Assembly: GCF_002871915.2 (NCBI RefSeq)
Contig: NZ_CP126958.1
Span: forward strand, 186,001-250,000
Direction: 5' to 3'
From: Aerococcus loyolae
GTDB lineage: Bacteria > Bacillota > Bacilli > Lactobacillales > Aerococcaceae
Length of the DNA stretch: 64,000 nucleotides
Below, piece by piece: positions 41,979 to 46,593 of this stretch. Every line of letters begins with the position of its first letter. Position 1 is the first letter of the stretch. The notes beneath the pieces are model-generated. The model had not been told where the DNA came from, searched no databases, and worked only from the letters and a program-made list of their open reading frames with translations. The translations under genes were made by a program, and so were the position numbers.

Positions 41979-42082
41979 GACAAAAGTCGTTAAGCTCTGA
42001 ATCACTGGAGCAAAGGATGGAAGAGCCTTGTTAGAGGCTCGGCCAGCCTTTGTGAAGTGGAGTCAGAGCTGACTTTTGGAGC
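41979..42082 (+). repeat. nested hairpin element, copy A
   Basis: Successive paired blocks: AAAAGTC/GACTTTT, AGCTCTGA/TCAGAGCT, CACT/AGTG, CAAAGG/CCTTTG and GAGCC/GGCTC. Between CACT and CAAAGG lies GGAG, facing TGA on the other arm. It ends TTTTGGAGC, as do the plus-strand copies at 46 kb. Confidence 0.75.
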
Positions 42083-42142
42083 AGGTTTTGGCTAGTATGG
42101 CTAACGCCTACTAGCCATAATTCACATCGAGTCGGGTTCGTT

Positions 42143-42233
42143 CTAGCAGCTTTCGTGTCACTTCACAAGTTCCCACTGCAGTCTTGCAGACTGCTTTGGC
42201 GACTTGCTCCAGTGAACGAAAGCTAAGTGCTAG
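42143..42233 (-). repeat. nested hairpin element, copy B
   Basis: Read on the minus strand: CTAGCA/TGCTAG, AGCTTTCG/CGAAAGCT, CACT/AGTG, the GGAG/TGA loop, CAAG/CTTG and a GCAGTCT/AGACTGC hairpin. Inverted relative to copy A, 60 bases away. Confidence 0.72.
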
Positions 42234-42517
42234 CCCTCACACCCTGATGCTTGCTTATTCATGGCTAACGACCCAATTCAAGCGCCACTACTGCTCAGAG
42301 CTATTTATCAAATAAAAAGATATTAAGACAATACTTATCATTAGTAAAAAATTAAAGAGTCAACATTTTAATCTTGTCCAGCCTTCGTTATTTGCAAGTA
42401 AAAATGATTTATAAATAATATTTTATACTTTTAAAGTGATAAAAAGAAAAAAGGTCAAAAAAAGTCAACGAATTACTTGATTTATATCTGGAAATGTTTT
42501 ACTATAAATATTGTAAG

Positions 42518-42544
42518 TTAGCAGTCGGAGATGATGAGTGCTAA
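42518..42544. promoter_or_regulatory. CIRCE operator of groESL
   Basis: TTAGCAGTC, nine bases, GAGTGCTAA: one mismatch to the HrcA operator (TTAGCACTC-N9-GAGTGCTAA). A TATAAA minus-ten at 42503-42508 lies just upstream, so bound HrcA would block groES transcription. Confidence 0.92.
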
Positions 42545-42598
42545 CAAATCATTAAAAGTGTTATTAATTAGTATGTGAAATTTGGAGGGATATTTTAA

Positions 42599-42868
42599 AT
42601 GTTAAAGCCGTTAAATGAACGTGTGATTATTCAAGTCCAAGAAGAGGAAGAAAAAACTGCTTCTGGCATCGTTTTACCATCTGCTGCTAAAGAAAAACCT
42701 CAAGTAGGTCAAGTGGTAGCCGTTGCTGATGCTACTGATGACTACACCCCTCAAGTTAAAGTGGGCGACCAAGTGATTTTTGAAAAATATGCAGTAAGCG
42801 AAATCCGCTATGAAGGGGAAGATTACCTCATTATTAAAGAAAAAGATCTAACTGCTGTAGTTGAATAA
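42599..42868 (+). CDS. groES: co-chaperonin GroES
   Basis: An 89-residue lid of the GroEL chamber. Motifs [11 protein letters not shown] at the start, [23 protein letters not shown] (mobile loop region, quoted in part) and the final [15 protein letters not shown] are typical. Start follows TTTGGAGGGATATTTTAA. First gene of the heat-shock operon under CIRCE, with groEL 82 bases behind. Confidence 0.96.
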
Positions 42869-42950
42869 TCATTGATTGAACTTCGACAATCAACATAAAA
42901 AATAATTGAATTCTCGATCATGCTTAGATTTAGAATAGGAGATAGATAGA

Positions 42951-44579
42951 ATGGCCAAAGATATTAAATATTCAAGTGATGCAAGACAATCTTTAGTAGA
43001 AGGTATTGATAAATTAGCCAATACCGTGAAAGTGACCTTAGGGCCTAAGGGACGTAATGTTGTCCTAGAACGTAGCTATGGTTCTCCATTAATCACCAAT
43101 GACGGGGTGACTATTGCTAAAGACGTTGAATTAGAAGATCACTTTGAAAATATGGGAGCTAAATTAGTTTCTGAAGTGGCTTCTAAGACCAATGATGTTG
43201 CTGGTGACGGGACAACTACCGCTACCATCTTAACTCAAGCCCTCGTCCATGAAGGTTTCAAAAACGTGACAGCAGGGGCAAATCCTGTGGGCATTCGTCG
43301 TGGAATGGATCAAGCTATCCGTAAGGCAGTAGAAGCTTTGAAAGAGATTTCTGTTCCAGTGAATGCTAAAGAATCCATTGCCAACGTTGCGGCAATTTCT
43401 TCTGGCGACCAAGAAGTCGGTCAATTAATTGCTGACGCTATGGAAAAAGTAGGCCAAGATGGTGTCATTACCATTGAAGAATCACAATCCATGGACACTG
43501 CCTTAGACGTTGTTGAAGGGATGCAATTTGACCGTGGTTACCTCTCCCAATACTTTGTAACCGACAATGATAAGATGGAAGCTGTTCTCGATGATCCTTA
43601 CATCCTCCTCACTGATAAGAAGATTTCTAATATCCAAGATATCCTTCCATTATTAGAACAAATCGTACAACAAGGTAAATCCTTATTATTAGTGGCCGAC
43701 GATGTTGAAGGTGAAGCACTTCCTACTTTAGTCTTGAACAAGATTCGTGGGACATTCAATGTCGTTGCTGTGAAGGCTCCTGGCTTTGGTGACCGTCGTA
43801 AAGAACAATTAGAAGACTTAGCTGTTCTTACCGGTGGGACAGTCATTACTGAAGACTTAGGTCTTGAATTGAAAGACACCAGCATTGATCAATTAGGTCA
43901 AGCTGCCCGTGTAACCATTACTAAAGACGATACCACCATTGTTGAAGGTAAGGGTAACAAGGAACAATTGGAACAACGTGTGGCTCATATCAGAAAACAA
44001 ATTGAAGAAACTACTTCTGACTATGACCGTGAAAAATTACAAGAACGTCTTGCTAAATTAGCTGGCGGGGTTGCCGTTGTTCGTGTAGGTGCAGCCACAG
44101 AATCTGAACAAAAAGAACGTAAATTACGTATCGAAGATGCTTTAAACGCAACTCGTGCTGCGGTTGAAGAAGGTATCGTAGCTGGTGGTGGTACTGCATT
44201 CATGAATATCCAAGACAAGGTGAAAGAAGTTGTTGACTCCTTAGAAGGTGACGAACAAACTGGTGCAGACATCGTGGTTCGTGCCCTTGAAACCCCACTA
44301 CGTCAAATCGCTGAAAATGCTGGTCTAGAAGGATCTGTTATTGTAGAACACATTCACGATAAAGACCAAGGTGTTGGTTACAACGCTGCTAGCGGTGAAT
44401 GGGTAGACATGATTTCTGATGGTGTGGTTGACCCAACCAAGGTTTCACGTTCTGCTTTACAAAATGCAGGTTCAGTAGCTGGTTTGATTTTAACTACTGA
44501 AGCAGTTGTTGCTGACCATCCAGAAGAAAATGCAGGCAATGATGCAGCTGCAGGAGCAGGCGCACCAGGCATGTATTAA
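42951..44579 (+). CDS. groEL: chaperonin GroEL
   Basis: A 542-residue ATP-dependent chaperonin subunit. [40 protein letters not shown], the ATP motif [13 protein letters not shown], and [13 protein letters not shown] are intact; the C-terminus ends GAGAPGMY rather than a long GGM repeat. Start follows ATAGGAGATAGATAG. Codon use is strongly optimised. Ends at a hairpin terminator. Confidence 0.97.
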
Positions 44580-44606
44580 TCCAAAAACTGAATAGGATAA
44601 AGATTG

Positions 44607-44736: not shown

Positions 44737-44744
44737 TATTTTAT

Positions 44745-44797
44745 TAAAAAAGTAAGCTCAGATTAAGGAGATTTTCCTCAGTCAGAGCTTACTTTTT
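44745..44797. terminator. terminator of purA (bidirectional shape)
   Basis: AAAAAAGTAAGCTC pairs with GAGCTTACTTTTT. Confidence 0.88.
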
Positions 44798-44810
44798 CTC
44801 TTTATTGTTT

Positions 44811-46097
44811 TTACCAAATATTATCTAAGATTAAGGTTTGGGTCCGGTCAGGTCCCACTGACACTGTGGCAATGGGGGCCCCTACGATTTCACTGATGCG
44901 ACGGACATAAGCTTTAGCGTTTTCGGGAAGTTGATCAAAGTCTTGACAGCTAGTTATGTCTTCTTCCCAGCCAGGTAAACTTTCATAGATAGGTTGACAT
45001 TGAGCCAGGTAGCGCAAGTTAGCGGGGTAGGACTTGGATACTTGGCCATTAGGGGTTTGGTAGCCTACACAGACTTTAATTTCATCGAGGCCAGTTAAGA
45101 CGTCTAAACAGTTCAAGGAAAGTTTGGTTAAACCAGAAACGCGGCGAGCATGGGCCGTCACCACTCCGTCGAACCAACCTACCCGGCGCGGACGACCCGT
45201 AGTAGTACCATATTCATGGCCAACTTCACGGATGCGGTCCCCAATCGCATCATGTAATTCGGTTGGGAAGGGACCGTCACCTACTCGAGAGGTATAGGCC
45301 TTCATGACTCCGATAACGGTATTGATTTTGCTTGGGCCAATCCCACAACCGACCGTAGCACCACCGGCAATAGGGTTAGAGGAAGTCACGAAGGGATAGG
45401 TTCCATGATCAATATCCAGTAAGACCCCTTGGGCTCCTTCAAAAAGAATATTTTCCCCTTGATCATAGGCATCATTCATCAATAAGGAAGTATCCGTGAC
45501 ATATTCTTTCAGTTCTTGGCCATATGCCAGATATTCTTGGTAGATGGTGTCGTAGTCTAAGGGCTCTTCGTCATATACCTTGGTTAAGAGTTCGTTCTTG
45601 ATTTGAATTTGTATAGATAACTTTTCCGCAAAAGTTTCAGGATCGATGAGGTCAGCCATCCGGATACCATTACGAGCAATCTTATCCATATAGGCAGGAC
45701 CAATCCCCTTTTGGGTGGTACCGATCTTGTTGTCGCCTTTACGTTCTTCATCCAAGCGGTCGATCAGTTGATGGTAGGGCAAGATCACTTGGGCCCGTTC
45801 AGAGATGCGGAGATTTTCACAAGAGATCCCTGCTTGGCGCAAATAGGCCAATTCTTCAAGTAAAGATTTAGGGTTAACAACCACGCCATTTCCGATCACA
45901 CTCAGCTTATCTTCTGAAAAAATTCCTGAGGGAACGAGGTGGAGCTTAAAAGTTTGCTGGTTGAATTGGATCGTGTGGCCAGCATTATCTCCGCCTTGGT
46001 AACGGGCAATAATATCGGCTTGGCTACTGAGGTAATCGGTGATTTTTCCTTTTCCTTCGTCGCCCCATTGAGTACCTACAACAACAACTGATGGCAT
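44811..46097 (-). CDS. purA: adenylosuccinate synthetase
   Basis: GTP-dependent joining of IMP and aspartate, first step to AMP. 428 residues with [17 protein letters not shown] (GTP/IMP P-loop), [10 protein letters not shown] (catalytic His), [28 protein letters not shown] and [10 protein letters not shown] at the end. Start follows AAAGGAGAACGCAT. Divergent from purB, which catalyses the next step; the 496 bases between hold hairpin repeats. Confidence 0.96.
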
Positions 46098-46285
46098 ATG
46101 CGTTCTCCTTTATCTATTCGATCTTAATAATGTCTTCATCATGTTAGCTTGTGGCATAACACCCAAAATATTATACCGCAATTTTTTTTGAAGAAAACCT
46201 TTTTTTAGGTCATGACCTTTTTAATAATAAAAAAAGTCCTTGCCTGCCCTAAAAAAATAGCATACATTTATAAAGTACAGAGTGC

Positions 46286-46388
46286 GACGGATGCACCAAA
46301 GATCGATAACACTGGAGCTAAAGAGCAAAAATTCTTGAAAAGAATTTCTTGCACTTTAGTGAAGTGGAGATCGATCTGCATCCGGAGC
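46286..46388 (+). repeat. nested hairpin element, copy C
   Basis: GGATGC/GCATCC, AGATCGAT/ATCGATCT, CACT/AGTG, GGAG facing TGA, CTAAAG/CTTTAG and AAATTCTT/AAGAATTT in nested order; ends CCGGAGC. Same architecture as copy A with different stem sequences. Confidence 0.78.
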
Positions 46389-46405
46389 ACGTTTTTACAG
46401 AGTGT

Positions 46406-46511
46406 GACAAGCGCACTAAAGAGCAAGACCATTGGAAGAAAAAGGCGTAAAAATTCTCAGAGAGAATTTGTCGCCATTTTCTGAAATGGACGCTTGCTCT
46501 GCGCTTGGAGC
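46406..46511 (+). repeat. nested hairpin element, copy D
   Basis: AAGCGC/GCGCTT, AGAGCAAG/CTTGCTCT, CCATT/AATGG, GGA facing GA, AGAAAA/TTTTCT, GGCG/CGCC and AAATTCTC/GAGAATTT; ends TTGGAGC. The start AGTGTGACAAGCGC is shared with the partial copy at 46522 and the degenerate one at 44736. Confidence 0.78.
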
Positions 46512-46593
46512 AGATTTGAATAGAGTGCGACAAGCGCACCAGCAGGCAAGAAGCACAGGGCAGAGTGAACTGCCAGAAAAGGAGTCAAATTAG

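What the first reader, a model, noticed from the sequence alone, without database searches (positions are those of the whole stretch)
41979..46540. Undescribed family of covarying nested hairpins (about 100 nt) in intergenic spaces
Four good copies (41979-42082 +, 42143-42233 -, 46286-46388 +, 46406-46511 +), one degenerate copy (44665-44736 -) and one 5' fragment (46522-46540 +). All share one architecture: outer stem, an ACYA-like bulge, an 8-bp stem, a small A/GAG loop, a 4-5-bp stem (CACT/AGTG or CCATT/AATGG), an internal loop GGAG facing TGA, then an inner stem and hairpin. Stems have different sequences in each copy yet keep pairing, while loop bases stay constant. That is the signature of selection on RNA or single-stranded DNA structure, not just of recent copying. 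Copies C, D and the fragment are tandem with a period near 121 bases. I know of no named Aerococcus element like this; it could be a mobile MITE-like hairpin, a processing/stability element or a protein-binding RNA.
Basis: partly seen in the sequence, partly recalled or inferred. Interest (0 to 1): 0.8.

Follow-up and report, generated by a model that had tools for sequence, protein, structure and literature searches.

The report
Mobile nested-hairpin repeats in Aerococcus
Short stretches of DNA that fold into a hairpin within a hairpin are scattered and stacked between genes of Aerococcus and many related bacteria; they are mobile repeats of a kind already described in Enterococcus faecalis, and they swap whole hairpin modules while keeping the fold.

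Summary
In detail: four good ~115-nt nested hairpins (A-D), one weak copy (E) and a 5' fragment (F) lie where stated. A covariance model finds at least 109-147 copies in each of three Aerococcus genomes, hits 91 of 395 Lactobacillales genomes and, phylum-wide, 1 of 398 (the seed genome). In 124 aligned copies 93.5% of pair cells pair (62.8% when shuffled) and 32 of 33 pairs change on both sides, while two G·A internal loops stay fixed. It is not a new kind: a chain of models links it to a ~168-bp two-stem-loop repeat in a genome identified as E. faecalis, which fits Efa-1 (Petrillo 2008, passages read) and EFAR (Venditti 2007, recalled). Best reading: non-autonomous mobile hairpins that exchange nested modules and often enter stem-loops such as terminators. 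A close relative lacks the A+B insertion and E. Of seven empty sites folded, three are clear stem-loops, one is weak and three are not. At one orthologous site the interior was swapped with 13 compensated and 1 broken pair, so much covariation is block exchange, with some point compensation. Host function and mobilising enzyme are unknown.

The parts
41775..42336 (.). Composite insertion holding copies A and B, absent from G013
   Evidence: BLAST gap between window and G013; no clear stem-loop at the empty site
41973..42087 (+). Copy A
   Evidence: R1 112.3 bits, z -7.75, R2 84.9 bits
42135..42244 (-). Copy B, a different subfamily
   Evidence: R1 70.1 bits, z -6.67; not listed by R2 at E<=0.01
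44607..44641 (-). Terminator-like palindrome following copy E in the purA direction
   Evidence: Read from the sequence
44662..44736 (-). Copy E, degenerate, sense to purA and downstream of it
   Evidence: R1 16.3 bits, E 0.1-0.26; window 44620-44725 absent from G013
46280..46393 (+). Copy C
   Evidence: R1 107.1 bits, z -9.70; present in G013 with a ~49-nt deletion
46400..46516 (+). Copy D, in tandem with C
   Evidence: R1 98.8 bits, z -7.88; 97.4% identical to the G013 copy
46523..46540 (+). Fragment F, 5' end of a third array unit
   Evidence: Exact GAGTGCGACAAG; in G013 a divergent full-length copy follows D

Best explanation
The hairpins are copies of a non-autonomous mobile repeat: the Aerococcus branch of a Lactobacillales superfamily that includes the ~170-bp repeat of E. 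faecalis (Efa-1/EFAR). Shown: one nested fold with two fixed internal loops; a hundred or more copies in some genomes; near-identical copies with unrelated flanks in single genomes; presence/absence between close relatives; one site where a 43-nt stretch ending in a plain terminator is replaced by element plus terminator; copies lying inside loops of other copies; nested modules exchanged with both arms together. Inferred: a trans-acting enzyme, or the cell's own hairpin repair and recombination, acts on the folded single strand, so copies tend to land at stem-loops (often terminators close after stop codons) or in each other, and the fold is kept mainly because copies that lose it stop spreading. 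Effects on neighbouring mRNAs are possible by-products.
For: Copy numbers: >=128 (HMSC062A02), 28 (Lacticigenium), 3 (Bavariicoccus), 63 (A. tenax record); 11 of 15 genomes of the genus; 91 of 395 of the order; 1 of 398 phylum-wide. Near-identical units with unrelated flanks in G155, G218 and G361. G013 lacks A+B and E. Of 14 A. tenax/G013 junctions read, 9 have an R1 element on one side only (two of these with an element fragment on the other). Element plus terminator in A. tenax where G013 has a plain terminator (L095 27968 / L181 8257). Nested insertions in L184. Module mosaics and swaps at orthologous sites. 21 of 39 and 5 of 17 copies within 30 nt after a sense stop, against 446 of 5600 random points. 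Sequence-and-structure link to the E. faecalis repeat.
Against: No mobilising enzyme found. Stem-loop targeting is mixed: of seven empty sites folded, three are clear (z -3.35, -3.63, -5.79), one weak (-2.09), three not (-0.55, 0.81, 0.46). No fixed target duplication established. Aerococcus clusters are followed by a terminator-like hairpin no more often than random pieces (3 of 25 against 41 of 300). Window A-D lie upstream of groES and purB, not in a 3' UTR. C and D persist in G013, which a useful host element would also do. R3, built from E. faecalis copies alone, does not list the window copies and finds A. tenax copies only at E 0.0015 or weaker.
Confidence: 0.68

Rival explanations
1. 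Host-selected cis RNA element: the transcribed hairpin, with or without the following terminator, blocks exonucleases, is cut by RNase III or backs up termination, and is kept because it helps the host gene.
For: Pairing kept under change; compensated changes between near-identical copies; enrichment just after sense stops and a terminator-like hairpin behind 23 of 39 copies in other Lactobacillales; C and D present at the same site in G013.
Against: Presence/absence between close relatives; arrays and nested insertions; 7 of 23 A. tenax clusters antisense to both annotated neighbours (hand count); 5 of 10 well-flanked orthologous copies are 62-79% identical where flanks are 91-98%; 38 unpaired against 17 compensated cells in close pairs; four Aerococcus genomes have none.
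Confidence: 0.17
2. Single-stranded-DNA recombination site of the attC kind: the folded strand is a site for a tyrosine recombinase or the like, and arrays grow by site-specific insertion.
For: Imperfect hairpins with fixed unpaired bases, tandem arrays of ~120 bp, an extra array unit in G013 bounded by a shared AGAGTGCGA.
Against: No gene cassettes between units and no integrase looked for or found; singletons are common.
Confidence: 0.06
3. Dispersed small-RNA or protein-binding RNA gene.
For: Strong fold and fixed G·A loops.
Against: In dispersed near-identical copies the shared block starts at the hairpin, with no shared upstream sequence that could be a promoter; stem sequences vary freely; no Rfam family above threshold.
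Confidence: 0.03

Closest known systems
Efa-1 (Petrillo et al. 2008, PMC2267715; passages read) and EFAR (Venditti et al. 2007; recalled, paper not held) of Enterococcus faecalis
   Same: Intergenic, 163-170 bp, two adjacent stem-loops; recalled for EFAR: modular build and integration at stem-loops. The G293 copies have a 117-nt nested hairpin with the same one-sided bulge, and 14 of 17 carry the same second stem-loop 9 nt behind it.
   Different: Stem and loop sequences differ; Aerococcus copies are often tandem arrays or composites without the second stem-loop. The published EFAR/Efa-1 sequences were not compared.
BOX, RUP and SPRITE of Streptococcus pneumoniae (PMC3049150; passages read)
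   Same: Small interspersed mobile repeats; BOX is modular; elements insert into one another; enrichment near gene ends.
   Different: SPRITE is an 18-bp duplex plus a U-rich tract, ~28% GC; BOX and RUP have TIRs and target duplications, not established here. Their sequences were not compared by a tool.
REP/BIME repeats with RAYT (Y1) transposase (recalled)
   Same: Dispersed imperfect palindromes, clusters, often 3' of genes.
   Different: Much longer and nested; no Y1_Tnp match in G001, G006, G013, G155 or G361 (9 of 26 genomes have one).
Integron attC sites (recalled)
   Same: Folded imperfect hairpins with fixed unpaired bases, in arrays.
   Different: No cassettes; no integrase sought.

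Membership tests
Efa-1/EFAR superfamily | Sequence-and-structure relatedness to the E. faecalis repeat | tested here: met
   By a chain: R1 gives 71, 17 and 16 matches at E<=1 in G385, G351 and G276 (best 2.2e-11, 1.6e-9, 3.0e-10); R2 from 16 of those plus 3 others gives 17 matches at E<1e-7 in G293 and 84.9, 58.9 and 49.1 bits on window A, D and C. Directly it is weak: R1 on G293 best E 0.003; R3 on A. tenax best E 0.0015, none in the window.
Efa-1/EFAR superfamily | Two adjacent stem-loops, ~163-170 bp | tested here: inconclusive
   Met in 14 of 17 G293 copies and by a terminator-like hairpin behind 23 of 39 copies in other Lactobacillales, and by eye in E; not met in window C-D arrays nor in most Aerococcus clusters (3 of 25).
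Efa-1/EFAR superfamily | Modular assembly (recalled for EFAR) | tested here: met
   223 of 2335 classifiable copy pairs share some modules and not others; swaps at orthologous sites.
Efa-1/EFAR superfamily | Integration at stem-loops with loss of most of the stem-loop (recalled for EFAR) | tested here: inconclusive
   Replacement seen at L095 27968; of seven empty sites folded three clear, one weak, three not.
MITE (non-autonomous DNA transposon) | Terminal inverted repeats, target duplication, related transposase | tested here: inconclusive
   The whole element is an inverted repeat; no constant target duplication seen in 14 junctions; no parent transposase found.
REP/RAYT | Y1 (RAYT) transposase in the genome | tested here: not met
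   PF01797 absent from 17 of 26 genomes, among them copy-rich G001, G005, G006, G013, G015, G155 and G361.
Any Rfam 15 family | Match at or above the gathering score | tested here: not met
   Only a T-box and a tRNA elsewhere in the window; hits in the region are far below threshold.
SPRITE/BOX/RUP | Sequence match to the published models | not testable with these tools
   Models not held; described features differ (passages).

The most novel reading that the evidence does not exclude
The repeats form a structure-guided modular recombination system. The fixed G·A internal loops are joints at which folded strands accept new hairpins or swap inner hairpins, so hairpins nest inside hairpins. A factor that reads fold rather than sequence does this, and the strong covariation is written mostly by arm-coupled exchange instead of by paired point mutations.
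Probability: 0.2. Interest if true: 0.8.

Novelty: new member of a known kind. Interest (0 to 1): 0.5.

Why it matters
It joins a repeat of E. faecalis and unnamed Aerococcus hairpins into one Lactobacillales superfamily with a stable fold, at a hundred or more copies in some 2-Mb genomes. Annotators and RNA-motif hunters will meet it: its covariation looks like that of a regulatory RNA, yet much of it comes from exchange of whole hairpin modules, a useful caution for covariation tests. It also offers a natural system for asking how palindromes without a known transposase spread.

Tried and rejected
Rfam: nothing above threshold in the region. RAYT/Y1 transposase: absent from copy-rich genomes. 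Reverse transcriptase: in 12 of 26 genomes, absent from copy-bearing G002, G005, G015, G072, G376 and G139. Phages: no match for two queries in 50,697 records. Virus contigs: pattern gave none; two hits are one identical stretch that does not fold as the element. Plasmids: three queries match only CP127381.1. Five of the 18 genome-contig stretches (L004, L007, L010, L015 and their like: four) do not fold as the element and were dropped as chance; correctly counted, four of 18. SPRITE/BOX as identity: described features differ. Linker RTTCG covarying with P5 as a switch: seemed so in some genomes, fails for A. tenax 137563; not pursued. A terminator after every copy: fails in Aerococcus. Every insertion at a stem-loop: fails at three of seven sites. 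Print: searches list no paper on such repeats in Aerococcus (listings and abstract starts only seen for these; open-licence PMC only). PMC10969869 was seen in passages.
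Full report
WHAT IS THERE. A and B lie between a Rex-like gene and groES, E between convergent groEL and purA, and C, D and fragment F between divergent purA and purB, sense to purB. Each good copy folds as one strand into an outer stem GTGC/GCAC, a tandem G·A loop (GA facing GA), stem P2, a 4-5-nt bulge on the 5' side only, P3, a small loop, P4 (CACT/AGTG or CATT/AATG), a loop GG..A facing GA, and an inner stem-loop. 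A-D are far more stable than shuffled sequence; E is not.

HOW MANY AND WHERE. R1 was built from 12 copies: A-D, four of Aerococcus sp. HMSC062A02, one of A. tenax, two of Lacticigenium naphthae, one of Bavariicoccus seileri. It gives 128 matches in HMSC062A02 (G001), 28 in L. naphthae, 3 in B. seileri and 63 in A. tenax CP127381.1 at E<=0.01 (150 candidates scored per genome, so lower bounds, except 66 of 66 in the A. tenax record). In the genus 11 of 15 genomes match at E<=0.001, the top three with 147, 127 and 109; G004, G009, G010 and G011 have none. In the order 91 of 395 match at E<=1e-4, with nine candidates scored each. In a phylum sample the only hit in 398 genomes is G001 itself. False positives are therefore rare and the family looks confined to Lactobacillales.

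FOLD UNDER CHANGE. From 55 of the 191 sources then held (near-identical loci left out) 124 copies were aligned, 120 distinct. 93.5% of cells pair, against 62.8% in shuffles and 35.5-45.2% in slid structures; 32 of 33 pairs change on both sides. That alignment was fitted to the model and leans to it. Nearly constant unpaired bases are the outer GA/GA and the inner GG..A/GA. Among 45 pairs of copies that differ at 1-8 sites, 17 cells changed on both sides and still pair (6 kinds, 9 of the 17 at one pair), 24 stay paired by a one-sided change, 38 have one state unpaired and 13 have neither paired; slid structures give 0-2 two-sided paired changes. Point compensation is real but modest, and many copies decay.

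MODULES. Copies are mosaics. Among 78 Aerococcus copies (window, A. tenax, G013) 2335 of 3003 pairs could be classified: 84 share P2, P3 and inner stem, 2028 share none, 223 share some (from outside in SSD 55, SDD 64, DDS 57, DSS 19, DSD 23, SDS 5). Independent shuffling of modules would give SSD 21, SDD 195, DDS 163, DSS 21, DSD 195, SDS 18, SSS 2, so neighbouring modules travel together more often than that. The five SDS pairs all involve one copy. Arms go together: clearly discordant 4 against 2411 concordant for P3, 1 against 2355 for the inner stem, 52 against 2410 for P2, 62 against 1514 for P4; intermediate pairs set aside. Of 35 copies compared with G013, 18 gave an alignment over the element; 10 of these have at least 690 bp of flank and are taken as orthologous sites. 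In five of the ten the element is 62-79% identical where flanks are 91-98%; in the other five it is 92-99%. Downstream of rsmG the outer stem and flanks are kept while P2, P3, P4 and the inner stem are of other types (70.4% against 94.5%; 13 two-sided, 2 one-sided, 1 broken). Between pth and a ribose-phosphate diphosphokinase gene P2 and P3 are identical and the inside is exchanged (6 two-sided, 3 broken). Against this, L096 20885 shows 19 broken pairs and no compensated one, and over all 18 the sum is 62 two-sided, 41 one-sided, 58 broken.

MOBILITY. G013 lacks window 41775-42336 (A+B) and 44620-44725 (E). One search lists 23 length differences between parts of A. tenax CP127381.1 and G013; I read 14. 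Nine of the 14 have an R1 element on one side only, two of these with an element fragment on the other. At L095 27968 A. tenax has element plus terminator where G013 has 43 nt that end in a plain terminator. In L184 two further elements sit in the inner TGA loop and the apical loop of a copy that is whole in A. tenax. In L176 an extra array unit is bounded by a shared AGAGTGCGA. Seven empty sites were folded as DNA: three are clear stem-loops (z -3.35, -3.63, -5.79, the last at E), one is weak (-2.09), three are not (-0.55, 0.81, and 0.46 at A+B). A second palindrome sits at the same P4 position in G013 and A. tenax and, as a relative, in G155. G155, G218 and G361 show near-identical hairpin, linker and terminator with unrelated flanks.

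PLACE RELATIVE TO GENES. One copy per locus was tested. In other Lactobacillales 21 of 39, and in three genomes of the enterococcal family 5 of 17, start within 30 nt after the stop of a sense open frame of 60 codons or more, against 446 of 5600 random points. 23 of 39 have a terminator-like hairpin within 100 nt after and 3 of 39 before, against 40 of 300 random pieces. In CP127381.1 I grouped the 36 hits by hand into 23 clusters: 9 start 0-9 nt after a sense stop (twice sharing its last base) and 7 are antisense to both annotated neighbours. Against a general 3'-UTR role: Aerococcus clusters are followed by a terminator-like hairpin no more often than random (3 of 25 against 41 of 300), and window A-D lie upstream of genes.

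RELATION TO KNOWN REPEATS. R1 barely sees it (10 matches at E<=1, best 0.003), but has 71, 17 and 16 matches at E<=1 in G385, G351 and G276 of the same family. R2, from 16 of those and 3 others, gives 17 matches at E<1e-7 in G293: a 117-nt nested hairpin with the same one-sided bulge and, in 14 of 17, the same second stem-loop 9 nt behind, ~168 bp in all. A strict terminator detector rings in only 6 of these 17 because that stem is long and imperfect. R3, from G293 copies alone, finds the G385/G351/G276 copies, E. faecalis-type copies (93-113 bits) in tandem beside five of them, L093 at 41 bits, and A. tenax copies at E 0.0015 or weaker, none in the window. In Petrillo et al. 2008 (passages) Efa-1 of E. 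faecalis is 163 nt, 65 copies, intergenic, a pair of adjacent stem-loops. From memory only, Venditti et al. 2007 described EFAR: ~170 bp, two stem-loops, modular, integrating at stem-loops. The Aerococcus hairpins are best filed as a distant branch of that superfamily.

MECHANISM. Best supported: parasitic, non-autonomous hairpins that enter stem-loops and each other and exchange nested modules. Mobility and module exchange are shown by comparison; targeting by fold is inferred and only partly borne out; who moves them is open. A Y1 transposase is excluded as the general answer; other enzymes were not tested except reverse transcriptase.

Noticed in passing
L182:620-784, L180:3617-3739, L019:12241-12403, L148, L149: A second palindromic repeat (CGCATACTATATCTGTAA...) sits at the same place in P4 of the hairpin in A. 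tenax and G013, and a relative of it in G155.
   Followed up: partly
CP127381.1 (L019, L095-L098): The record titled a 592-kb plasmid of Aerococcus tenax carries dnaA, gyrA, rpoB and ribosomal protein operons, so it looks like a piece of the chromosome.
   Followed up: no
L096:20707-20814, L097:42584-42696, L074:9250-9362: A divergent subfamily with ends GGATGTGAG...CGAACTC takes part in the same arrays.
   Followed up: no
L075-L083, L088-L094, L099, L109, L098:22135-22257: The linker between hairpin and terminator often holds ATTCG or GTTCG, matching the 3' strand of P5 in the same genome; a possible alternative pairing, with exceptions.
   Followed up: partly
G016: This Aerococcus genome has 18 matches to the Y1 transposase family but few of the hairpins (22 matches).
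   Followed up: no
window 53568-53785 + and 5792-5865 +: A T-box leader and a tRNA, the only Rfam matches in the window.
   Followed up: no
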